Shown here: positions 18,383 through 30,217 of the stretch, piece by piece
How positions within the stretch are numbered: position 1 is the first letter of the stretch
How the letters are laid out: each line of letters opens with the position of its first letter
Assembly: GCF_003284725.1 (NCBI RefSeq)
Contig: NZ_PGTO01000003.1
Location: forward strand, 282,153-346,152
DNA length: 64,000 nt
Direction of reading: 5' to 3'
Source: Paramagnetospirillum kuznetsovii
Lineage (GTDB): Bacteria > Pseudomonadota > Alphaproteobacteria > Rhodospirillales > Magnetospirillaceae
The notes under the pieces: model-generated
What the model was told of the DNA's origin: nothing
Database searches by the model: none
Seen by the model: only the letters and a program-made list of their open reading frames with translations
Made by a program: the position numbers and the translations under genes

Positions 18383-20035
18383 ATGACCAATCCAACCCGG
18401 CTTCCCGCTTGGGCCGCTCTTGAGGCAAGGGCGGCCAAGATCGGCGCGCGCCCCATGCGCGATATGTTCGCCGCCGACCCCGACCGTTTCCGCTCGTTCT
18501 CGCTGCTTTTGGGCGACCTGCTGCTGGATTATTCCAAGAACCGGATCGACTGCGACACCATGGGGCTGCTGGAAGCCCTGGCCAACCAGTCCGGGGTGAG
18601 CGAAGCGCGCGACGCCATGTTCTCGGGCGAGAAGATCAATGCCACCGAGCGCCGGCCGGTGCTGCATGTGGCGCTGCGCAACCGCTCGGACCGACCCATG
18701 CTGGTGGATGGCCACGACGTCATGCCGCAGGTCAGGGCGGTGCTGGCCAAGATGAGGGACTTTTCCGACCGGGTGCACTCGGGCCGGTGGAAGGGCGCCA
18801 CCGGCAAGACCATGGCCACCGTGGTCAATATCGGTATCGGCGGCTCGGACCTGGGGCCGGCGATGGTGACCGAGGCGCTGAAACCCTATCAGCGGCCCGA
18901 TCTGGCGGTGCGCTTCATCTCCAATGTGGACGGCAGCCACGCCGCCGAGGTGTTGAAGGCGTGCGACCCGGAAACCACCCTGTTCATTGTGGCGTCCAAG
19001 ACCTTCACCACCCAGGAGACCATCGCCAACGCCACCACCTGCCGGGATTGGCTGGTCGGCACACTGGGCGAGGCCGCCATCCCGAAGCATTTCGTGGCGC
19101 TGTCCACCAATGGCAAGGCGGTGGCCGAATTCGGCATCGACACCGCCAATATGTTCGAGTTCTGGGATTGGGTGGGCGGGCGCTATTCCCTGTGGTCGGC
19201 CATCGGCCTGTCCATCGCGGTGGCGGTGGGATTCGACCGCTTCGAGGAATTGCTGGACGGCGCCTTCGCCATGGACGAGCACTTCCGCACCGCGCCGCTG
19301 GCCGCCAACATGCCGGTGATCCTCGCCATGCTGGGGGTGTGGTACGGCAATTTCCTGGGCGCCCAGGCCTATGCCGTACTGCCCTATGACCAGTATCTCC
19401 ACCGGCTGCCGGCCTATCTGCAGCAGCTGGACATGGAGAGCAACGGCAAGGGCACCGCCAAGGACGGCAGCCCCGCCACCTGGCAGACCGGCGCCATCGT
19501 GTTCGGCGAGCCCGGCACCAACGGCCAGCACGCCTTCTATCAGTTGATCCACCAGGGCACCAAGCTGATCCCCTGCGACTTCCTGGCCGCCGCCGAGACC
19601 CATAATCCGCTGGGCGAGCATCACCTGATGCTGCTGTCCAATTTCCTGGCCCAGCCGGAAGCCCTGATGCGCGGCAAGACCGAGGACGAGGTTCGCGCCG
19701 AACTGACGGCGGTCGGCATGAGCGAGGCCGAGATCGCCTTCCAACTGCCGCACCGGGTCTTTTCCGGCAACCGACCGACCAATTCCTTGCTGTATCGCCG
19801 CCTCGATCCCCGCACGCTGGGCATGCTGATCGCGCTGTACGAGCACAAGGTCTTCGTCCAGGGCGTGGTGTGGGACGTGTTCAGTTTCGATCAGTGGGGG
19901 GTCGAGCTGGGCAAGGTGCTGGCCAAGAAGATCCTGCCGGAACTGTCGTCCACCACCCCGGTCAGCGGCCACGATTCCTCCACCACCGGCCTGATCGCGC
20001 AGTTGCGGGCGTGGAGAACCCCCCATCCGGGCTGA
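18383..20035 (+). CDS. pgi: Glucose-6-phosphate isomerase
   Basis: A 550-residue cytoplasmic enzyme interconverting glucose 6-phosphate and fructose 6-phosphate. The signatures [30 protein letters not shown], the long [12 protein letters not shown] region and the C-terminal [22 protein letters not shown] are present. I chose the ATG at 18383 because [14 protein letters not shown] aligns with the usual N-terminus of gammaproteobacterial Pgi; an in-frame ATG at 18356 would add nine residues. No neighbour belongs to the same pathway. Confidence 0.96.
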
Positions 20036-20068
20036 TTAGAGAAATTCTGGTAATTTTACCGCCCGCCC

Positions 20069-20110
20069 CTTATACCTACGCAGGGGAAGTTACTACACCG
20101 CTGGTATAAG
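20069..20110. promoter_or_regulatory. Inverted repeat upstream of the diguanylate cyclase gene
   Basis: CTTATACC (20069-20076) is repeated in inverse at 20103-20110 (GGTATAAG), 26 nt apart. This is 26-60 bp before the cyclase start, a position suited to an operator or promoter element. A second short inverse pair, CCGCT/AGCGG, overlaps the right arm. No regulator can be named. Confidence 0.4.
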
Positions 20111-20135
20111 TAGCGGTGGCCGTGGGCGGCGGGGA

Positions 20136-21872
20136 ATGACCGAACAGAGCAGACTGAACGCGGCGGCGGAGCGCCGACGCATGGGGCCACGTTTCAGCGC
20201 CAACTTCATGATGGTGCTGGAAGTGTCGCGCGACCTTGCCTGTCTTTGCGCCGACGGCGTCATCTTGGATATCAACAGCGCCGGAACTCCCATGCTGGGG
20301 GCCGAACGGGCCGACCAGCTGATCGGGCGGCGCTTCTCCGATCTGGTGGGGGACGATTATACCCAGGTCGTCGATGAGCTGCTGCGCCTGACCGAAGTGG
20401 AACGCTCCACCATTCCCGTGCAACTGCGGCGCCTCGATGGCTCGGCGGCCGACAGTGAATTGCAGATTCATCCCGCCCGGGAATTGGGACCGGGCCACGC
20501 GGTGGTCATCGGCCGCGACATCAGCCGCCAGGGACGGTTGGCCCGCACAGCCCGCGAGAGCGAGGACCGCTTCCGGGTGCTGGTCGAGAAGTCCATGCAT
20601 CTCGTCGCCCTGTGCCATGGCGGCCGCATGGTCTACATCAACACCGCCGGAGCGCGTATGCTGGGCGCCGCAACGGCCGGCGACTTACAGGGCACCCCCG
20701 TGGCCGACATGTTCCACGGCGAGTATCGCGCCATTTTCGGCGGCGACCTGACCCTGCTGCTGGGGGAAACCGACATGATGCCGGTTCGCCTCGCCAACCG
20801 GGACGGCGGTGCCTTCGACGCCCAGATCAAGGTGACGCCGCTGCCCTCGGCGGGGGTTGTCCCCGAATTCATGATCGAGGCCCGCGACATCTCCAGCCAT
20901 CTGCGGGCGGTCGCCGCGCTGCGGCACATGAACGAAACCCTGGAAGCGCAGGTCTCCGAGCGAACCCGCGAACTGGCGCAAGAGCGTTCCCATGCCCTCG
21001 AAGCCAAGTCCTTCGTGGAAAGCCTGCTGGAAGCCGTCCCCAACCCCTTGTGGTGGAAGGGAGTCGACGGCTGCTTCAGGGGCTATAACCGCGCCTTTCG
21101 CGAAATGCACGGCATCGGCCCGACGGAATGGATCGGGCGGTCCTCCATCGAAACCCTGCCGGCCTCGTTTGTTCCAACCGCCATCATGTCCGATACCAAG
21201 GCCATGATGACGGGCACCCTGATCCAATACGAAACGCAACTGGAAGTCGCCGACGGCAGTCTTCATGACATGGCGGCCAGCAAGATCGCGTGGCGCTCGG
21301 CCGACGACGTCCCCGAAGGGGTGATCGGCGTCATGCTGGACATCACCGATCGCAAGGCCATGGAGGCCGAATTGCGCCGCATGGCCACCACCGATGTGCT
21401 GACCGGCGTCTATAATCGCCGCCATTTCATGACCATCATCGGCACCGAGGTGGAGCGTGCCCACCGTCATCCCCGGCCGGTCACCGCCCTGATGCTCGAC
21501 ATCGATCATTTCAAGCGCATCAACGACACTTTCGGACATCCGCTGGGCGACGAGGCCATCAAGGCCATGGCCAACGCCTGCCAGGACGCCATTCGCACCG
21601 TCGATGCTCTGGGCCGCCTGGGCGGCGAGGAATTCGCCATCGTCCTGCCCGATACCGATCTTGCCGCCGCCATGGTGGTGGCCGAGCGCATCCGCGCCGC
21701 CGTCATGGCCATCTCCATTGCGACGGGAAAGGGAGTGGTGGAATTCACCACCAGCATCGGCGTCGCCCAGCTCTGCGATGACGACGGCAATGCCGAGGGG
21801 CTGCTGTCGCGGGCCGATGCGGCGCTTTATGCCGCCAAGAACGGCGGCCGCAACAAAGTGGTGGCGGCTTAA
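20136..21872 (+). CDS. Diguanylate cyclase with three PAS-like sensor domains
   Basis: A 578-residue soluble protein with no membrane helix. Three PAS-like regions lie at about residues 20-125, 140-255 and 290-405; a short coiled coil ([22 protein letters not shown]) precedes the third. The C-terminal GGDEF domain has [20 protein letters not shown] and the active-site motif GGEEF at 496-500. The inhibitory I-site RxxD is present as RTVD at 487-490, five residues before it, so the enzyme should be product-inhibited. It would make cyclic di-GMP in answer to an unknown cytoplasmic signal. No EAL domain is present. Confidence 0.92.
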
Positions 21873-21915
21873 GGCCTTCTCCTCGGCGGATCAAACCGGC
21901 TACACTGCCGCCACC

Positions 21916-23712
21916 ATGTCCGTCCGCCTCCTCCCCCCCACCCTGGTCAACCAAATCGCCGCAGGTGAAGTGGTGGAGCGTCCCGCCTCGGCGGTGAAGG
22001 AACTGGTGGAAAACGCCATCGACGCCGGGGCGTCGCGCATCGACGTGGTGCTGATCGAGGGCGGCCAGGCCCTGATCTCGGTCACCGACGACGGCGGCGG
22101 CATGGGGCCGGACGAGATGGATCTGGCGGTGGAGCGCCACGCCACCTCCAAGCTGCCCGACGACGATCTGGTGCGTATCCGCTTCCTGGGTTTCCGGGGC
22201 GAGGCGCTGCCCTCCATCGGCTCGGTGGCGCGCCTGACGCTCACCAGCCGACCCAAATCCGCCGAGTCCGCCTGGAGCCTGACGGTCGAAGGCGGCGCCA
22301 AGGCGAAGCCGGTTCCGGCGGCGCTGACGGCGGGCACCCGCGTCGAGGTCCGCGACCTGTTCTACGCCACCCCCGCCCGCCTCAAATTCCTGAAATCCGC
22401 CCGTGCCGAGATGGCGCAGGCCTCCGACGTCATCGAACGCCTGGGCATGGCCCATCCCGCCATCGGCTTCACCCTGTCCGACGGCAGCCGCAAACTGCTG
22501 GATCTGGCCCCCAAGCGCGGCGAGGCCAAGGCCGCCCTGCTGTCGCGCATCGCCCAGGTGGTGGGCCGCGACTTCGAGGCCAATGCCCTGGAACTGAATG
22601 CCGAGCGCGACGGCGTGCGGCTGACCGGCTGGGCGGGCCTTCCCACCTACAACCGCGCCAGCCCGGCGGCCCAGTACCTGTTCGTCAACGGCCGTCCGGT
22701 CAAGGACCGGCTGGTGATCGGCGCGGTGCGCGGCGCCTATCAGGACGTGCTGAGCCGCGACCGCCATCCGGTGGTGGCGCTGTTCCTCGATCTCGACCCC
22801 GAGCAGGTGGACGTCAACGTCCATCCCGCCAAGGCCGAGGTGCGCTTTCGCGATTCCGGCAATGTGCGCGGCCTGATCGTCGGCGCCATCCGCCATGCCC
22901 TGGCTGGCGCCGGTCACCGGGCCAGCACCACGGTGTCCGAGGCGACCATAGGAGCGCTGGGCGGCACCAACCGCCCCACCTATTCCTGGCAGGCGCCCGC
23001 CCGTCCGTCCCTGCCCCTGATGCGGATGGGAGAAGCGGCCCAGGCGCCGTTCGGACTGGCCGAGGCGCTGCCCGGCCTGGACTTGTCCCCCTCGGCGCCG
23101 CCCGGCGACACCGCCGAGATCGTGCCGTCCGACTATCCGCTGGGAGCGGCGCGCGCCCAGTTGCACGATACCTATATCGTCGCCCAAACCGCCGACGGTC
23201 TCGTCATCGTCGATCAGCATGCCGCCCACGAGCGTCTGGTGCTGGAACGCATGCGCCAGTCCATGGAAGACGGCGGCGTCAAGCGCCAGGGGCTCTTGCT
23301 GCCCGAAGTGGTGGAACTGGGCGAGGCGGGTTGCGCCCGCGTGATGGAACGGGCGGACGACCTCGCGGCGCTGGGCCTCGTGGTGGAGGGATTCGGCCCC
23401 GGCGCCGTGGTGGTGCGCGAGACTCCCGCCCTGCTGGGCGATTGCGATGTCCAGGGCATGGTGCGCGACCTGGCCGACGAACTGGCGGAATGGGGCCAGG
23501 GTCACTCGCTGCAGGAACGGCTGCTGCATGTCTGCGCCACCATGGCCTGCCACGGTTCCGTGCGGGCGGGGCGCAGGCTGGGCATCCCGGAGATGAACGC
23601 CCTGCTGCGCCAGATGGAGGCGACGCCACTGTCGGGCCAGTGCAACCACGGCCGCCCCACCCATGTCAGCCTCAGCCTCGCCGATATCGAGAAGCTGTTC
23701 GGGCGGAGGTAG
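21916..23712 (+). CDS. mutL: DNA mismatch repair protein MutL, endonuclease type
   Basis: The product is 598 residues from the ATG at 21916; the open frame upstream is not coding. The N-terminal GHKL ATPase has [31 protein letters not shown] and [13 protein letters not shown]. The C-terminal dimerisation domain contains [12 protein letters not shown] (Asp433 onward), ACHGSVRAG and GQCNHGRPT, which form the metal-binding endonuclease site of MutL in bacteria that lack MutH. It connects MutS mismatch recognition to strand incision. mutS is not in the window. Confidence 0.96.
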
Positions 23713-23825
23713 AAAGACCCATCAATACGGCTTCTTGCGGCAACCGGCATTCCGCCTTAAGTTTCCAGGTCGTGGATGTTTCTTAGTCGAACCATCCCTT
23801 CCAAGGGCGCTTGAAGGACGATCCC

Positions 23826-25091
23826 GTGCTGACCTCGGTCAAGATTCGCAATTATAAATCCATCGAATCGGTTCCGCTCGATCTTGGCCGCATCAACGTT
23901 CTGATCGGCGAGAACGGCGCCGGTAAAAGCAATATCCTGGAAGCCATCGCCCTGGCCGGAGCGGCCAGCGCGGGCAAACTCAACAACGAATTCCTGGCAT
24001 CGCGCGGAATTCGAGTTGCCGATCCGCAACTCATGCGCCCAGCCTTCGCCGATGGCACCGAAAACACCCCCATTGAAGTCGATCTCGTTGATGGCAGTGG
24101 CACTTCATATGAGTTAGAGCTTAATAACGATAATGCCCCATACTCCCAGTGGCAGTGCAGCTTTAATGGCGGCAGCGGCAATTGGATTGATTTTGATAAA
24201 TTTGGCCCAGCCCTATTGGCAGAGAGGGCAAAGAATGAATCTATCAAAAACGACCTCTCAATATTCATAAACACATTAGACTCAATAATTGAGTTAAATT
24301 CTTTAGAAGAAACCACACATAATGACAACGCTAACAAGACACATCGCATTGACATTGGAGGCGACCTTCCAGTATTTTTTGAGTTTTTGAAAAAAGAAGC
24401 TCCAAAATTTACGAAAATATCAGACCACATTGGCGGCTTTATCATTTACTCACCGGAAAATACGTCTTTGCGCCTATTCGAGCGCGATGGCCAAGTCGAA
24501 CCGCTGGGGATCAATGGCGAGGGGCTGTTCAAACTCTTATCCGTGATCTTCGACGGCGACGACCTTCAAGCCATCGACAGCATCCGGCGCGGTCTCCGGC
24601 TGTTCGGCTGGTTCAAAAATTTCGACGTCCCCAAGGAGACCAGCCACGGTCGCCGCGGCATTCAGGTTCATGACCGTTTCGTCGAGGCCACCAATCGAAT
24701 TCTCGACCAGAAAAGCGTCAACGAGGGTTTCTTGTTCCTGCTGTTCTACGGCGCCTTGTTTTCCAGCAAGCTGACCCCGCGGTTCTTCGCCATCGACAAT
24801 GTGGATGCGTCTTTGAACCCGAAGCTCTGCCAGCACATGGTCAATTATCTGGGCAAGCTTGCGAAAGAGAACGGCAAGCAGGTCATCATGACCACCCATA
24901 ACCCGGCGGTGCTGGACGGACTGAATCTTGACGACGACGACCAGCGGCTGTTCGTCGTCTCGCGCGCGACCTCGGGGCGGACCAAGGTTCGCCGCATCGA
25001 AAAGCCCAGGACGGTCGATGGCGCTCCGCCGGTCCGGCTGTCGGAGGCATTCCTGAGGGGCGCGCTGGGCGGATTGCCCAAGGGCTTCTAA
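23826..25091 (+). CDS. AAA/ABC-type ATPase of the OLD/RecF-like class, cassette gene 1
   Basis: A 421-residue ATPase. I choose the GTG at 23826 because AAGGA lies 7 nt upstream; a TTG at 23811 is in frame. It opens with LTSVKIRNYKSIESVPLDLG, then Walker A GENGAGKS at residues 28-35. Near the C-terminus are FFAIDNVDASLNPKLC (Walker B, with Asn where Glu is usual) and the H-loop region IMTTHNPAVLDGL. This layout matches AAA_15/AAA_21 ATPases of OLD-type and related defence systems. The middle third (about 24100-24480) is far richer in A+T than either end. The next gene follows after 2 bp. Confidence 0.8.
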   Translation: MLTSVKIRNYKSIESVPLDLGRINVLIGENGAGKSNILEAIALAGAASAGKLNNEFLASRGIRVADPQLMRPAFADGTENTPIEVDLVDGSGTSYELELNNDNAPYSQWQCSFNGGSGNWIDFDKFGPALLAERAKNESIKNDLSIFINTLDSIIELNSLEETTHNDNANKTHRIDIGGDLPVFFEFLKKEAPKFTKISDHIGGFIIYSPENTSLRLFERDGQVEPLGINGEGLFKLLSVIFDGDDLQAIDSIRRGLRLFGWFKNFDVPKETSHGRRGIQVHDRFVEATNRILDQKSVNEGFLFLLFYGALFSSKLTPRFFAIDNVDASLNPKLCQHMVNYLGKLAKENGKQVIMTTHNPAVLDGLNLDDDDQRLFVVSRATSGRTKVRRIEKPRTVDGAPPVRLSEAFLRGALGGLPKGF

Positions 25092-25093
25092 CC

Positions 25094-25756
25094 ATGACGA
25101 CATTTGCCCTGATCACCGAAGGGATCACCGACCAGATCGCCTTGGAGCTGATTCTTGAGGGCCATTATCGTGGCAAAACCGACCAAGACATCGACGTCGA
25201 ACCGCTCCAGCCCACTCGTGACGCCACGGACCAGTCACGGCTTCCATCGGACGCGTTCGGCGGCTGGGAACTGGTGCTGGAATATTGTTCGCTCCACGAC
25301 CGCATTCACGAAGCCTTGGCCTTTAACGATTATCTGGTCATTCAGATCGATACCGATTGCGGCGAGGAGGTGAATTACGGCGTTCCCCTGACCATCGACG
25401 GGGCCGAGCGCGCGATCCCCGATCTGGTGGAGGCGGTGCGGGCAAGAATCATCGCCTGTTTGAGTCCTGAACTCCATGAGACGTACAAGGGTCGGATTCT
25501 ATTCGCGATCTGCGTCCACTCCCTGGAATGCTGGCTCCTCCCCCTGCATGAGAGGCAAGGAGACAAGAAGAGAAAGACTCACGCTTGCGCTGACAAACTG
25601 CAACGTGCGCTGGCGCGGAAGACGATTAACTTCGCCAAGGATTATGACACCTACCGCGACATTGCCTTGGAATACCGAAAAGCCAACCATGTGGCGCGCA
25701 ATTTGGAATTCAACGAGAGCTTCGCCATCTTCATCAATGATCTGCCGGTTCTTTAA
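25094..25756 (+). CDS. TOPRIM-like small protein, cassette gene 2
   Basis: A 220-residue soluble protein beginning 2 bp after the ATPase stop. Two motifs fit a TOPRIM fold: an early strand ending in Glu9-Gly with Asp13 (ALITEGITDQ), and a second strand with Asp86 and Asp88 (YLVIQIDTD), the DxD metal site. A third conserved-looking segment, CVHSLECWLLP, recalls DUF4276/DUF4435-like proteins that accompany AAA ATPases. The likely role is a nuclease or effector controlled by the ATPase. The family assignment is from motifs only and is uncertain. Confidence 0.6.
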   Translation: MTTFALITEGITDQIALELILEGHYRGKTDQDIDVEPLQPTRDATDQSRLPSDAFGGWELVLEYCSLHDRIHEALAFNDYLVIQIDTDCGEEVNYGVPLTIDGAERAIPDLVEAVRARIIACLSPELHETYKGRILFAICVHSLECWLLPLHERQGDKKRKTHACADKLQRALARKTINFAKDYDTYRDIALEYRKANHVARNLEFNESFAIFINDLPVL

Positions 25757-25894
25757 TCCGCTGTCTCTCGCGGCCAATCATCGTCAGTCCGTGCCGGGTT
25801 ACTCCTGATTCGTGAGGGGTGGCGCTAGGGGCTTGCCGAAAGCATCGCATCGGCGTAACCCTTGAATCATTCCAATGGCGGATGAGGTGTGCCG
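25757..25894. other. Intergenic region after the ATPase cassette
   Basis: A gap of 138 bp between the TOPRIM-like gene and the Fe-S subunit gene. I see no open reading frame of note, no repeat and no clear terminator hairpin. The GAGG Shine-Dalgarno of the next gene is at 25884-25887. Confidence 0.5.
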
Positions 25895-26359
25895 ATGATC
25901 TCCCTGATGATCAATGGCGAGCGGCGCAAGGTCGACGCCTCTCCCGACATGCCGCTGCTGTGGGTGTTGCGCGACCAGCTCGGCCTGAACTTCACGCGAT
26001 ATGGCTGCGGACAGGGCCTGTGCGGCGCCTGCACCATCTTGTTGGACGGCGAGCCGGTCCGCGCCTGCATGACCCCGGTGGGCGAATTGGCCGGGCGCCG
26101 GATCACCACCATTCACGGCCTCGAAGGCGGCGTCGCCAAACTGGTCAAGGCCGCCTGGGTCGAACTGGACGTGCCGCAATGCGGCTATTGCCAAGCGGGA
26201 CAAGTGCTGGCCGCCACCGTCCTGCTGCGCAAGAACCCCAAGCCCAGCGACGCCGATATCGACGACGCCCTGGACGGCCATCTGTGCCGCTGCGGCACCT
26301 ATCGACGCATCCGCGCCGCCATTCATCTCGCCGCCAGTCGGCTGGGCGGCGCGCCATGA
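25895..26359 (+). CDS. 2Fe-2S subunit of a molybdenum hydroxylase, isoquinoline 1-oxidoreductase alpha type
   Basis: A 154-residue electron-transfer subunit of the xanthine oxidase family. The plant-type ferredoxin cluster is bound by Cys in [17 protein letters not shown], and the second cluster by CGYCQAGQ and CRCGTY in the C-terminal half. The ATG at 25895 has GAGG 7 nt before it; the GTG at 25889 is less likely. The stop codon overlaps the start of the catalytic subunit gene (ATGA). The two-subunit form, without an FAD subunit, is typical of IorAB-like enzymes that hydroxylate N-heterocycles or oxidise aldehydes. Confidence 0.9.
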
Positions 26360-28491
26360 GCCGCTTTGATGCCACGGCCCTCGGCCGCCGAGACTTTCTC
26401 AAGGTCTGCGGCGCGGCGGGCCTGACCCTGGCGGCGGGCAGCACCGCCGCCGCCGAACCGGGCGAATTCGTCGCCAATGCCTTCGTGTCCATCGCCGCCG
26501 ACGGACAGGTGACGGTGACCGTCAAGCATCTGGAAATGGGCCAGGGCGTCGCCACCGGCCTGCCGGTCCTGGTGGCCGAGGAATTGGAAGTCGATCCCGC
26601 CGCCATCCAGATCGCCTACGCCCCCGCCGACGCCAAGCGCTACAATAACCTGTTCTGGGGGCCGTCCCAGGGTACCGGCGGCTCCACCGCCACCGCCAAT
26701 TCGTGGGAGCAATTGCGCAAGGCCGGCGCCGGCGCCCGCGAAATGCTGGTGGAGGCGGCCGCGCGGCGCCTGAAGGTGGATCGCGCCGGACTGGTCGCCC
26801 TCAATGGCGAGGTGGTCCACGGGGCGAGCGGACGCCGCATCGCCTATGGCGATTTGGTCGGCGATGCCGCCAAGCTGACGCCGCCGGATAATCCCCCATT
26901 GAAAGCACCCGCCGATTTCCGCCTGATCGGTCGCGCGGGCGTCAAACGTTCGGACTCCAAGGCCAAGACCGAGGGAACCGCCGTCTATGGCGGCGATATC
27001 AGGCTACCCGGCCTGGTCACCGCCCTGGTGGCGCGGCCGCCGGTCTTCGGCGCCAAGCTGAAGGACTTCGACCGCCGCCCGGCCCTGGCCCTGGCCGGAG
27101 TGGTGGCGGTGGTCCCCATTTCCTCCGGCGTGGCGGTGGTAGGCACGGATTTCTGGTCCGCCCACCGAGGCCGCGAGGCGCTTAAGGTGGACTGGACCAC
27201 CCCCGCCAACCCGCCCTCGACCGAGACGATCCGCCGCGACTGGACCGCCTTGCTGGACAAGCCGGGTCTGGTGGCCCGCGCGCAGGGCGAGGCCGAGGCG
27301 GCGCTGGGGCGCGGGTCCAAGCGATTGTCGGCGGTCTACGAGACCCCTTACCTCGCCCATGCCCCCATGGAACCGCTGAACTGCGTGGTCAAGCTGTCGC
27401 GGGACAAGTGCGAGATCTGGACCGGCTGCCAGTTCCAGACCCATGACCAGGCCATGGCCGCCAAGGCGGCCGGGCTACGGCCCGACCAGGTGGACATCCA
27501 CACCCTGGTGGCGGGCGGCAGCTTCGGCCGCCGTGCCAATCCGGCCTCCGACTACATCGTCGAGGGCGTCGAGATCGCCAAGGCGGTGGGCGCCCCCGTC
27601 CGCCTGATGTGGACCCGCGAGGACGACATCCGGGGCGGCTATTATCGGCCCATGTTCCTGCACGGCTTCGAAGCGGCCCTGGACGCGGGCGGCATGCCGT
27701 CGGCATGGCGTCACCGCATCTGTGGCCAGTCCATCCTGGACGGCGGCCCCTTCGCCGCCATGATCAAGGACGGCATCGACTTCGTCTCGGTGGAAGGCGC
27801 CGCCAACCTGCCATACGCCATTGCCAATCTTCAGGTGGAACTGCATTCCCCCAAGCTTTCGGTGCCGGTGCTGTGGTGGCGCTCGGTGGGGTCCAGCCAC
27901 ACCGCCTTCGCCACCGAATGCTTCCTGGACGAGCTGGCCCATGCGGGCGGGAAAGACCCGCTGGCGCTCCGCCGCGCCCTGCTGGCCGACCATCCTCGCC
28001 ATCTGGCGGTCTTGGAGCTTGCTGCCGCCAAATCCGGTTGGGGTGAACCGTTGCCGCCTGGCAAGGGGCGCGGCCTCGCCGTGCATGAAAGCTTCAACTC
28101 CTTCGTGGCCCAGGTGGCCGAGGTCACCATCGGCCCCAAGGGCGAAATCAAGGTGGACCGGGTGGTCTGCGCCGTGGATTGCGGCATCGCCGTCACCCCC
28201 GACGTGGTCAAGGCCCAGATGGAAGGCGGCATCGCCTTCGGCCTGTCCGCCGCCCTGTTCGGCGAGATCACCCTCAAGGACGGCGCCGCCGAGCAATCCA
28301 ATTTCCACGACTACCGCTGCCTGCGCATGTCCGAGATGCCCAAGGTCGAGGTTCACATCATGCCCAGCGCCGCCGCCCCCACCGGCGTGGGCGAGCCGGG
28401 GGTTCCTCCCATCGCTCCAGCGGTCTGCAACGCCATCTTCGCGGCGACGGGAAAACGGGTGCGGAAATTGCCCATAGGTGAAAAAATTTAG
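26356..28491 (+). CDS. Molybdopterin-binding catalytic subunit, isoquinoline 1-oxidoreductase beta type
   Basis: A 711-residue protein of the aldehyde oxidase/xanthine dehydrogenase molybdenum-subunit family. The N-terminus carries a twin-arginine signal ([14 protein letters not shown]), so the complex should be exported folded to the periplasm, with the Fe-S partner travelling along. Cofactor-binding segments include [39 protein letters not shown] and the C-terminal [17 protein letters not shown] with the catalytic Glu. Substrate is unknown: quinolines, isoquinolines, nicotinate-like rings or aldehydes are candidates. No cytochrome gene follows directly. Confidence 0.9.
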
Positions 28492-28569
28492 GCCGTGATG
28501 CGCGTCGAACGCGTGGCTACGCCGGTAAAGAATGTGTTAAAGTTCGACAATGGGCGGCTATGGGAGGAC

Positions 28570-28764
28570 ATGATGCCGAACATTTTCGAACTGGGAGCTC
28601 GACGCGGCGAAAAGACCGGCGACCTCCGCGATCACGACGAATACGACTACCGGGCGACGGAAGGTCGGGCCAGCACCACGGACCCACGGCTGAAATACGT
28701 GCCGACCCTGGAATTGGAGTCCACCGACGCCTTGCTGGAGATCGCTCCGGGCAAGAAGCGGTAG
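28570..28764 (+). CDS. Small conserved-looking acidic/basic protein, unknown
   Basis: Starting at ATG 28570, which has the strong ribosome-binding site GGGAGGA, the product is 64 residues. It is highly charged (GARRGEKTGDLRDHDEYDYRAT) with no signal peptide, membrane helix or Cys. I do not recognise it. It sits in the short gap before ccmC, 75 bp upstream, on the same strand. The strong Shine-Dalgarno and normal codon use support that it is translated. Confidence 0.55.
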   Translation: MMPNIFELGARRGEKTGDLRDHDEYDYRATEGRASTTDPRLKYVPTLELESTDALLEIAPGKKR

Positions 28765-28839
28765 GTCGGCGAAGCATTGCCGCGAGTTAATGTCGCCATT
28801 TCTTGAGCCGGGCGGAAATCCGGGGTATGAAATGCGCCC

Positions 28840-29574
28840 ATGCATCGCTTCGCCAATCCCGCCCGCTTTCTGCGTCTGGCCAAGGTAATCCTGCCGTATT
28901 CGTCGGGAACCGCCGTACTGTCGCTTTGTCTCGGCCTGTGGTTCGCCCTGGCCGCCTCGCCCGCTGATTACCAGCAGGGCGACAGCGTCCGCATCATGTA
29001 TGTCCATGTCCCCGCCGCCTGGATGGGCATGTTCTGCTATGTGGCCATGGCGGCCTTCTCGGCCATGGCGCTGATCTGGAAGCATCCGCTGGCCGATCTG
29101 CTGGCCAAGGCCACCGCGCCGGTGGGCGCCGCCTTCACCTTCCTGTGCCTGGTGACCGGCAGCTTGTGGGGCAAGCCCATGTGGGGCACGTGGTGGGCGT
29201 GGGATGCGCGGCTGACCAGCATGCTGATCCTGCTGTTCCTCTATCTCGGCTACATGGCGCTGATCGACGCCTTCGACGATCCCGAGCGCGGCCACAAGGC
29301 CGCCGCCATCCTGGCCCTGGTCGGCGCCGTCAACGTGCCGGTGATCAAGTGGTCGGTGGATTGGTGGAACACCCTGCACCAACCGGCCTCGGTGGTGAAG
29401 ATGGGCGGCCCGGCCATCGATTCCTCCATGCTGATTCCGTTGCTGCTGATGGCGCTGGGCTTCAAGGCCTATTGGGTCAGCATCCTGATCCTGCGCGGCC
29501 GCGCCGAAATCGCCGCCCAGAAGATCCGCGTCATCCGCATGGCGCAGATCCACGCCGCCTCGCGGGGGGAGTGA
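28840..29574 (+). CDS. ccmC: Heme exporter protein C
   Basis: A 244-residue inner-membrane protein with six helices. The tryptophan-rich periplasmic loop WGTWWAWDARLTS, flanked by conserved His residues (MYVHVPAAWMG and WWNTLHQPASV), binds heme and hands it to CcmE. This is the first step of system I cytochrome c maturation visible here. It heads a tightly spaced operon ccmC-D-E-F-G-H-I. Confidence 0.96.
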   Translation: MHRFANPARFLRLAKVILPYSSGTAVLSLCLGLWFALAASPADYQQGDSVRIMYVHVPAAWMGMFCYVAMAAFSAMALIWKHPLADLLAKATAPVGAAFTFLCLVTGSLWGKPMWGTWWAWDARLTSMLILLFLYLGYMALIDAFDDPERGHKAAAILALVGAVNVPVIKWSVDWWNTLHQPASVVKMGGPAIDSSMLIPLLLMALGFKAYWVSILILRGRAEIAAQKIRVIRMAQIHAASRGE

Positions 29575-29582
29575 TCAAGATC

Positions 29583-29780
29583 ATGGAATCCCTGTCCGGA
29601 CTGGTCCATATGGGTGGCTATGGCGGTTACGTCTGGCCCGCCTATGGCATCAGCATCGCGGTTCTGCTGGCGGTTCTGGCGGCCTCCATCATGGCCGCCA
29701 GACGCAGCGAAGCCGAACTGGACCTGCTGCAACGTTCCCGTCGGGAAAAGCGCGGCGGCCAAACGGAGATTCCGGAGTGA
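29583..29780 (+). CDS. ccmD: Heme exporter protein D
   Basis: A 65-residue single-span membrane protein, MESLSGLVHMGGYGGYVWPAYG followed by a hydrophobic helix and a basic charged tail. The GGYGGYVWPAYG segment is the CcmD hallmark. It helps release holo-CcmE from the CcmABCD complex. It lies 8 bp after ccmC, and its TGA overlaps the GTG start of ccmE. Confidence 0.92.
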   Translation: MESLSGLVHMGGYGGYVWPAYGISIAVLLAVLAASIMAARRSEAELDLLQRSRREKRGGQTEIPE

Positions 29781-30217
29781 CCCGCAAGCAACGCAGGCTG
29801 TATTTCGTCCTTCTCGGCATGTTGGCCCTGGGGGCGGCGGTGGCTTTGGTGCTGACCGCCATATCGGACAGCCTTGTCTATTTCTATTCGCCCACCGATA
29901 TCGTGTCCCAGCGCATTCCCGAGGGTCGGCGCATGCGGGTCGGCGGTCTGGTGGAAGCCGACAGCGTCAAGAAGGACGGCAAGACGGTGACCTTCAAGGT
30001 GACCGACATCACCAACGCGCTGAACGTGACCTATGCGGGCATCCTGCCCGACCTGTTCCGCGAGGGTCAGGGCGTGGTGGTCGAGGGCCGCATGGAAAAG
30101 GACGGCCTGTTCCATGCCGCCGAGGTTCTGGCCAAGCACGACGAGAACTACATGCCCAAGGAAGTGGCCGACGCCTTGAAGAAGTCCGGCCAGTGGAACG
30201 ACGGCAAGAAGAAATAA
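29777..30217 (+). CDS. ccmE: Cytochrome c-type biogenesis heme chaperone
   Basis: A 146-residue periplasmic heme chaperone with an N-terminal membrane anchor (residues about 8-28) and an OB-fold. The heme-binding His121 and Tyr125 are in LAKHDENYMP. It takes heme covalently and delivers it to CcmF/CcmH. Start is GTG 29777, overlapping ccmD by 4 nt. After its stop a dispersed palindrome separates it from ccmF. Confidence 0.95.
   Translation: MTRKQRRLYFVLLGMLALGAAVALVLTAISDSLVYFYSPTDIVSQRIPEGRRMRVGGLVEADSVKKDGKTVTFKVTDITNALNVTYAGILPDLFREGQGVVVEGRMEKDGLFHAAEVLAKHDENYMPKEVADALKKSGQWNDGKKK

What the first reader, a model, noticed from the sequence alone, without database searches (positions are those of the whole stretch)
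23826..25756. Two-gene ATPase plus TOPRIM-like cassette, possible uncharacterised defence system
A RecF/OLD-like ATPase (Walker A at residues 28-35, IDNVDASLNP, TTHNP) is followed 2 bp later by a 220-residue protein with TOPRIM-like motifs (EG-D at 9-13, DxD at 86-88). ATPase and TOPRIM pairs occur in known anti-phage systems (PARIS AriA/AriB, Gabija and OLD in fused form), but the second protein here does not obviously match those. It sits alone between housekeeping mutL and a molybdenum hydroxylase, as a small cassette would. Sequence motifs are seen; the defence role is inferred.
Basis: partly seen in the sequence, partly recalled or inferred. Interest (0 to 1): 0.72.

Follow-up and report, generated by a model that had tools for sequence, protein, structure and literature searches.

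The report
ATPase–TOPRIM gene pair, PDC-M31 type
A two-gene insert that pairs an ATP-binding protein with a probable nucleic-acid-cutting protein sits between two ordinary genes; it belongs to a family already listed, but not known to be tested, as a possible bacterial defence against viruses, and its ATP-binding half lacks a residue normally used to burn ATP.

Summary
Gene A (23826-25091, 421 aa) is an ABC/OLD-type ATPase; gene B (25094-25756, 220 aa) has TOPRIM-type acidic residues and topology. The pair matches PADLOC's predicted candidate system PDC-M31 (A 1e-70, B 5e-9). B's family is distantly related to DUF4276/RloB/AbiLii proteins; no AriB/DUF4435 match was found. In 100 records holding B, A lies just upstream in 96; in the other four B is within about 30 nt of the locus start. 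The cassette is a clean, low-GC 2.1-kb insert: a same-genus genome with the same flanking genes has about 21 nt there. Relatives sit on small mobilisable plasmids, in viral contigs (one with P2-like head genes) and on chromosomes of several phyla. Their neighbours show no clear enrichment in defence genes. New here: the ATPase's catalytic Walker-B glutamate is Asn in 94 and Ser in 2 of 96 family members, never Glu, against Glu in all 29 readable ATPases (of 31 examined) beside DUF4276/DUF4435 genes. Best explanation: an abortive-infection module in which an ATP-binding, poorly hydrolysing ATPase restrains a metal-dependent nuclease until infection. Restraint, defence, trigger and target are inferred; the tRNA target rests on analogy with PARIS alone.

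The parts
23713..25850 (.). whole insert between the mutL stop and the region upstream of the [2Fe-2S] gene
   Evidence: same-genus genome G003 has 20-21 nt here, flanks 83% (left) and 79% (right) identical in DNA; right border 25851; GC 54.4% against 65.0% for the window, 70.6% mutL, 68.8% hydroxylase
23826..25091 (+). gene A: ABC/OLD-type ATPase, 421 aa, PDC-M31A
   Evidence: PADLOC PDC-M31A 1.1e-70; Pfam AAA_15/AAA_21 about 1e-20; model pLDDT 87.3; 239 PDB matches at E<=0.001, the 50 shown being retron or Septu ATPases, Rad50 and SMC-type heads
23907..23930 (+). Walker A GENGAGKS, residues 28-35
   Evidence: G28, N30, G31, G33, K34 invariant in 74 of 74 rows of alignment A4
24720..24728 (+). 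signature-position motif N299-E300-G301, where the comparison ATPases have S-D/E/S-G
   Evidence: N299 in 92 of 96 family members, S in 3 distant ones, gap in 1; comparison sequences
24795..24800 (+). Walker B D324-N325: catalytic-Glu position is Asn
   Evidence: N in 94, S in 2, E in 0 of 96; Glu in 29 of 31 comparison ATPases examined, 2 unresolved
25094..25756 (+). gene B: TOPRIM-type protein, 220 aa, PDC-M31B
   Evidence: PADLOC PDC-M31B 5.4e-9; model pLDDT 94.2, alternating strands and helices in the core; profile comparison with DUF4276 score 53 against at most 21 in 20 reversed or scrambled controls
25118..25120 (+). E9, acidic residue after strand 1 of B
   Evidence: 83 of 83; strand 2-7
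25349..25357 (+). D86-x-D88 at the end of strand 80-86 of B
   Evidence: 83 of 83 for both D; strand 80-86
25526..25534 (+). E145-C146-W147 at the start of helix 145-152 of B
   Evidence: E 82 of 83 (D in one), W 83 of 83; aligned to the Glu of HEFEALL in DUF4276

Best explanation
The cassette is a mobile two-gene module of the predicted PDC-M31 family that most likely protects its carrier, or the plasmid or phage that bears it, by abortive infection. Protein A binds ATP and assembles into a dimer or larger SMC/Septu-like head complex that holds protein B inactive. Because A lacks the usual catalytic glutamate, ATP probably acts as a long-lived clamp and not as fuel. An infection signal (a phage protein, or a fall in nucleotide level) loosens the clamp and frees B. 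B then uses E9, D86, D88 and probably E145 with divalent metal to cut nucleic acid, by analogy with AriB most likely tRNA, and the infected cell stops growing. Shown here: the pair, its close linkage, its motifs, its insertion, its presence on mobile elements and the Glu-to-Asn change. Inferred: complex formation, restraint of B by A, slow hydrolysis, trigger, target and defence.
For: Both proteins match one PADLOC candidate system. Linkage: B in 100 of 100 records, A upstream on the same strand in 96 (gap at most 113 nt); the other 4 (L018, L027, L093, L095) have B within about 30 nt of the locus start (L001 repeats the window and L002 looks like L011). In plasmids, A and B searches return the same 7 of 72,556 records. 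Empty site in G003 and low GC. Small mobilisable plasmids of 5.8-12.8 kb. Viral contig L096 has B next to portal, terminase, scaffold and capsid genes; L097 and L098 show matching gene sizes. B's family is related to DUF4276/RloB, and its best viral model match is an RloB-like protein, prob 1.00, E 4e-3, TM 0.48. Passages read: AbiLii of Fusobacterium is toxic in E. coli (PMC3985639); AAA proteins neutralise TOPRIM_OLD toxins D44 (RloB-like) and D60 (PMC10440598); AriB of PARIS is a two-metal TOPRIM tRNase held by the AriA hexamer (PMC12409363); GajA has likely lost hydrolysis but kept nucleotide binding (stated in PMC12796447).
Against: I found no defence assay of this family. PADLOC tallies for 106 near and 100 distant genes are alike, and the Pfam families listed for near genes are mainly metabolic. 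No match in 50,697 phage records at the limits used. Foldseek gives no solved structure for B at E<=0.001. The window's own B has no Pfam match. AbiLi did not neutralise AbiLii in one test, PARIS did not behave as a toxin-antitoxin pair, and AlphaFold2 gave no convincing AAA-toxin interface in PMC10440598, so 'A restrains B' is not secure. In Cran1, changing Walker-B glutamates to alanine had no effect in vitro or in vivo, so the Asn may not abolish turnover. The tRNA target rests on AriB, to which B shows no sequence match.
Confidence: 0.58

Rival explanations
1. A Gabija-like nucleotide sensor: A binds ATP without hydrolysing it and keeps B off; when a replicating phage depletes nucleotides, B is switched on and cuts DNA, not RNA.
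For: Catalytic-Glu position is N or S in 96 of 96. GajA is described as a binder that likely lost hydrolysis, with the TOPRIM domain freed when ATP is depleted (PMC12796447 passage). OLD and GajA TOPRIM domains cut DNA (PMC12409363 passage).
Against: B's family is nearer to RloB/DUF4276 than to OLD-like TOPRIM (6 of 83 weak hits, best 0.014). The substrate of RloB-type proteins is not given in the passages that I read, so this point is weak.
Confidence: 0.22
2. A plain toxin-antitoxin or addiction module that stabilises plasmids and prophages, without a dedicated phage trigger.
For: Small mobilisable plasmids; AAA neutralises TOPRIM toxins in other pairs.
Against: Most loci fetched come from genome assemblies with metabolic neighbours, where addiction gives little. 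The constant linkage fits both models.
Confidence: 0.13
3. A host maintenance function (DNA repair or RNA quality control) that happens to lie next to mutL.
For: OLD-like ATPases can have non-defence roles (Cran1, PMC12796447, start of abstract in the listing); the pair sits beside mutL here.
Against: Absent from the same place in G003 and, as a close copy, from 16 of 17 genus genomes; B in 2 of 99 relatives and 3 of 398 phylum genomes, own genome included in both; also on plasmids and viral contigs.
Confidence: 0.05

Closest known systems
PDC-M31 (PADLOC-DB 2.0.0 phage defence candidate)
   Same: Both proteins match its A and B models, side by side; 74 of 74 A rows and 83 of 83 B rows match too.
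   Different: Nothing tested differs. The family is only a prediction: no paper in the library holds the name PDC-M31, and passages of PMC12988326 say that experimental validation is lacking for most PDCs.
AbiL (AbiLi/AbiLii) of Lactococcus
   Same: ATPase plus separate RloB/TOPRIM-type protein; A matches the AbiLi model over residues 1-419, 1.4e-23; 14 of 83 B rows match AbiLii at E<=0.1, best 2.8e-4.
   Different: The window's B itself does not match AbiLii. The AbiLi Walker B residue was not compared here.
PARIS (AriA/AriB)
   Same: Two-gene ATPase plus TOPRIM layout; A matches AriA 2.5e-26.
   Different: B has no DUF4435 or AriB match; the ATPase-plus-DUF4435 rule used to detect two-gene PARIS (PMC9122126 passage) is not met. 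AriA's Walker B residue was not compared here.
HEC-01 and DUF4276 ATPase pairs
   Same: 40 of 83 B rows match a HEC-01B model; 29 of 30 DUF4276 loci fetched hold an ATPase ORF that matches A's profile.
   Different: Those ATPases have S-D/E/S-G and D/E-E motifs where this family has NEG and DN. In the profile alignment B's D86 pairs with an Asp of DUF4276 but D88 with a Tyr in the row shown.
Gabija GajA and OLD nucleases
   Same: ABC-type head plus TOPRIM-type acidic residues.
   Different: Separate genes here, no helicase partner among the flanking genes, weak OLD-like TOPRIM similarity.

Membership tests
PDC-M31 | adjacent A and B genes each matching the PADLOC models | tested here: met
   A 1.1e-70, B 5.4e-9 and 6.2e-5; 2 bp apart. 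PADLOC's own cut-offs and system rules were not available to me.
PDC-M31 | protects against phage | not testable with these tools
   no experiment possible; no paper in the library names it
PARIS | AAA_15 or AAA_21 ATPase | tested here: met
   75 bits for both against cut-offs of 32.1 and 27
PARIS | DUF4435 (AriB) partner | tested here: not met
   no match for B; DUF4435 not among the 25 of 29 Pfam families listed for the 83 rows
AbiL | AbiLi-type ATPase and AbiLii/RloB-type partner | tested here: inconclusive
   A matches AbiLi 1.4e-23; the window's B does not match AbiLii, 14 of 83 rows do weakly
Gabija | fused ATPase-TOPRIM GajA with UvrD-like GajB | tested here: not met
   separate genes; next genes are MutL and a molybdenum hydroxylase
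TOPRIM superfamily | conserved Glu after strand 1 and DxD after strand 3 in a Rossmann-like alpha/beta core (definition recalled) | tested here: met
   E9, D86, D88 in 83 of 83 after strand 2-7 and at the end of strand 80-86 of a pLDDT 94 model
TOPRIM superfamily | fold match to a solved TOPRIM domain | tested here: inconclusive
   no PDB match at E<=0.001; GajA at rank 31, E 0.26; RloB-like viral model first, E 4e-3
Retron or Septu effector | reverse transcriptase or HNH partner and ncRNA | tested here: not met
   flanking genes by Pfam; no Rfam match at gathering score in 20000-30000

The most novel reading that the evidence does not exclude
The whole PDC-M31 family runs on an ABC-type ATPase that has permanently swapped its catalytic glutamate for asparagine (and, in the core clade, its signature serine too): a natural ATP-clamped lock, like the Glu-to-Gln trap mutants of SMC proteins, that senses nucleotide level or a phage protein and releases a TOPRIM nuclease. 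It would be an immune switch that uses ATP binding without ATP turnover, conserved over several phyla.
Probability: 0.3. Interest if true: 0.65.

Novelty: new member of a known kind. Interest (0 to 1): 0.42.

Why it matters
It ties an unnamed ATPase-TOPRIM cassette to a specific predicted defence family, shows copies of that family on plasmids, in viral contigs and as a clean chromosomal insertion with an empty site, and adds a sharp testable feature that sets it apart from the sampled DUF4276 pairs: loss of the catalytic glutamate. If confirmed biochemically, it would help decide whether ATP hydrolysis is needed at all in ATPase-TOPRIM immunity.

Tried and rejected
PARIS membership: rejected, since no DUF4435/AriB match was found. 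Gabija and retron/Septu: rejected by gene content. The DUF4435 set (14 loci) was not cleaned and held fusions and long ORFs, so its non-match (probability 1.4) is weak evidence. The comparison of Walker B covered 31 of the 35 ATPase-type ORFs that one search lists apart from L116; the 4 weakest were not looked at, and 2 of the 31 were not readable by my pattern. Defence-island context: no clear excess. ORFs were called by a greedy rule of mine; 106 of 142 near and 100 of 107 distant ORFs were used, leaving out mostly the longest and, in the near set, also some of the last loci without a rule. The tool tallies by family and lists 25, so a modest excess cannot be excluded. 4 of 106 near genes match Uma2 and 4 match PDC-S03, against 1 PDC-S03 match among the 100 distant ones; one near gene matches PDC-M31A itself. 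Flanking target-site repeats: none convincing. Promoter before A: the only scan hit lies inside A, and the count is that of the shuffles. A first viral scan with the single protein gave nothing; the alignment gave 9 loci. The quick tree clusters strongly by phylum (9 changes against a shuffled mean of 35.6, 66 of 81 rows labelled), so it gives no evidence for frequent transfer between phyla; four plasmid copies and five viral copies group with Pseudomonadota, one plasmid copy with cyanobacteria, and viral L099 is unplaced.

Full report
What is there. Gene A (23826-25091, GTG start, 421 aa) and gene B (25094-25756, 220 aa) lie 2 bp apart on the + strand between mutL and a [2Fe-2S]/molybdopterin hydroxylase pair. 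A carries Walker A at residues 28-35 and matches AAA_15 and AAA_21 near 1e-20. B alone matches no Pfam, NCBIfam or PHROG family well, but both proteins match PADLOC's candidate PDC-M31: A at 1.1e-70, B at 5.4e-9. The search for the name PDC-M31 found 0 papers in the library. Passages of PMC12988326 describe PDCs as putative candidates found by 'guilt-by-embedding' and mostly unvalidated.

Family and linkage. A scan of genome contigs with the B alignment gave 127 confirmed places, of which the best 80 were kept. Viral contigs gave 9, plasmids 7 of 72,556 records, phage records 0 of 50,697. Over 99 loci plus the window, B was found in 100 of 100 and A upstream on the same strand in 96, with a gap of at most 113 nt; in the remaining 4, B starts within about 30 nt of the locus start. 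L001 repeats the window and L002 appears to repeat L011, so independent records number about 98. All were found through B, so this does not measure A without B; but a search with A in plasmids at E<=1e-30 returned the same 7 records.

Relationship of B. In the 83-row alignment E9, G10, D86, D88 and W147 are invariant, and E145 is E in 82. The model (pLDDT 94.2) places E9 just after the first strand (2-7), D86 at the end of the strand 80-86 with D88 just after it, and E145 at the start of the helix after the strand 135-140, the order expected of TOPRIM (recalled). At E<=0.1, 58 of 83 rows match DUF4276 (best 3.8e-6), 47 RloB (6.1e-6) and 6 OLD-like TOPRIM (0.014) in Pfam; the window's own B matches none. 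A profile comparison with 17 DUF4276 proteins scored 53 (probability 93) against at most 21 in 20 reversed or scrambled controls. No solved structure matched at E<=0.001; the best viral model is an RloB-like protein (probability 1.00, E 4e-3, TM 0.48). I take B as a diverged RloB/DUF4276-type TOPRIM; the fold is a good inference, not proven.

The ATPase is unusual. A's model (pLDDT 87.3) matches retron and Septu ATPases, Rad50 and SMC-type heads (50 shown of 239 at E<=0.001). Where ATPases of this kind have a catalytic glutamate after the Walker B acid (role recalled), this family has Asn in 94 and Ser in 2 of 96 members, never Glu (97 aligned, the window duplicate L001 dropped). The two Ser cases are the similar Acinetobacter plasmid copies L006 and L007. 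Of 31 ATPase ORFs examined beside DUF4276 or DUF4435 genes, 29 have Glu there and 2 could not be read by my pattern; 4 weaker ones listed were not examined. In one search the profile's idNidaslNP aligns with IDEIDLHLHP of a retron ATPase of known structure. At the signature position the family has N299 (92 of 96) where the comparison ATPases have Ser; three distant members (L009, L010, L116) keep S there but still have N at 325. Slow or absent hydrolysis is therefore predicted, not shown: PMC12796447 (passages) reports that changing the Walker-B glutamates of Cran1 to alanine had no effect, and also that GajA has likely lost hydrolysis while keeping binding.

Insertion and mobility. Of 17 genus genomes (own included) 17 have mutL. 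G003 has mutL followed by the same [2Fe-2S] gene, with 20-21 nt between the mutL stop and the point matching window 25850-25851, where the window has about 2.14 kb; DNA identity of the flanks is 83% and 79%. In the 8 other genus genomes whose mutL downstream region was fetched (1.4-2.5 kb), neither hydroxylase gene was found there; the remaining 7 were not fetched. The insert is 54.4% GC against 65.0% for the window, and third-position GC is 66-70% against 86-88% in three nearby genes. B occurs in 2 of 99 relatives and 3 of 398 phylum genomes, own genome included in both. A same-genus genome, G008, carries a distant A-B pair elsewhere. Copies lie on mobilisable plasmids as small as 5.8 kb. In viral contig L096 the pair lies next to portal, terminase, scaffold and major head genes, an arrangement I recognise from memory as P2-type, where P2 itself keeps old and tin near the same end; L097 and L098 have matching gene sizes but were not scanned. 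In L094 it lies next to a baseplate gene.

Context against the defence reading. The 25 Pfam families listed (of 85) for 106 near genes are mainly transporters, biosynthetic and other metabolic enzymes, with 4 Uma2 'putative restriction endonuclease' genes. PADLOC hits at 1e-20 are scattered in both near (106) and distant (100) sets with no clear excess: the commonest near family is PDC-S03 with 4 members, the commonest distant one mad3 with 3. The tallies are by family and the near list is cut at 25 of 36, so a small excess cannot be excluded. No recombinase was among the flanking genes scanned and no Rfam family in 20000-30000.

Mechanism. From relatives (passages read only): AriB is a two-metal TOPRIM tRNase held by an AriA hexamer and released on triggering (PMC12409363); PARIS needs both genes and both active sites, but deletion of either is non-toxic (PMC9122126); AAA proteins neutralised an RloB-like (D44) and another (D60) TOPRIM_OLD toxin, without a convincing modelled interface (PMC10440598); Fusobacterium AbiLii is toxic, but its AbiLi did not neutralise it in that test (PMC3985639). 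I therefore favour abortive infection by a nuclease B held by an ATP-clamped A. RNA, probably tRNA, is the likeliest target by analogy with AriB only. Confidence is 0.58 for the module as a whole, and lower for target and trigger.

Novelty. The family is already listed as a prediction, so this is a new member of a known kind. The points that I have not seen in print are the empty site, the spread over plasmids and viral contigs, and the family-wide loss of the catalytic glutamate. For the last, one search for papers holding at least four of TOPRIM, ABC ATPase, catalytic glutamate, Walker B and anti-phage listed 7 papers, none about this family by title; I read passages of one of the seven and found nothing on it. 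This search is narrow and the library holds open-licence papers only.

Noticed in passing
L116:1673-5322 (genome G008, same genus): A distant A-B pair of the same kind lies directly after a class I lysyl-tRNA synthetase gene (PF01921, 1.1e-135), which is curious given that AriB of PARIS cuts tRNA-Lys; one case only.
   Followed up: partly
L096, L097, L098: Viral contigs carry the pair beside head genes in what looks like the P2-type variable locus (recalled); only L096 neighbours were identified by PHROGs.
   Followed up: partly
L117-L146: 29 of 30 DUF4276 loci fetched hold an ATPase ORF matching A's profile, and DUF4276 matches reach seven in one genome: a large set of ATPase pairs.
   Followed up: partly
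L006:1818-3128 and L007:1927-3243: Acinetobacter plasmid copies have Walker B changed further, to ES in place of DN.
   Followed up: no
L071: This locus holds two A and two B matches, and one near neighbour in the scanned set matches PDC-M31A itself: a possible tandem copy.
   Followed up: no
window 24020-24460: The middle of gene A falls to 42% GC in a 65% GC window and overlaps the low-confidence part of the model; it may be the sensing region.
   Followed up: no
window 20136-21872: A PAS/GGDEF diguanylate cyclase gene lies just upstream of mutL.
   Followed up: no
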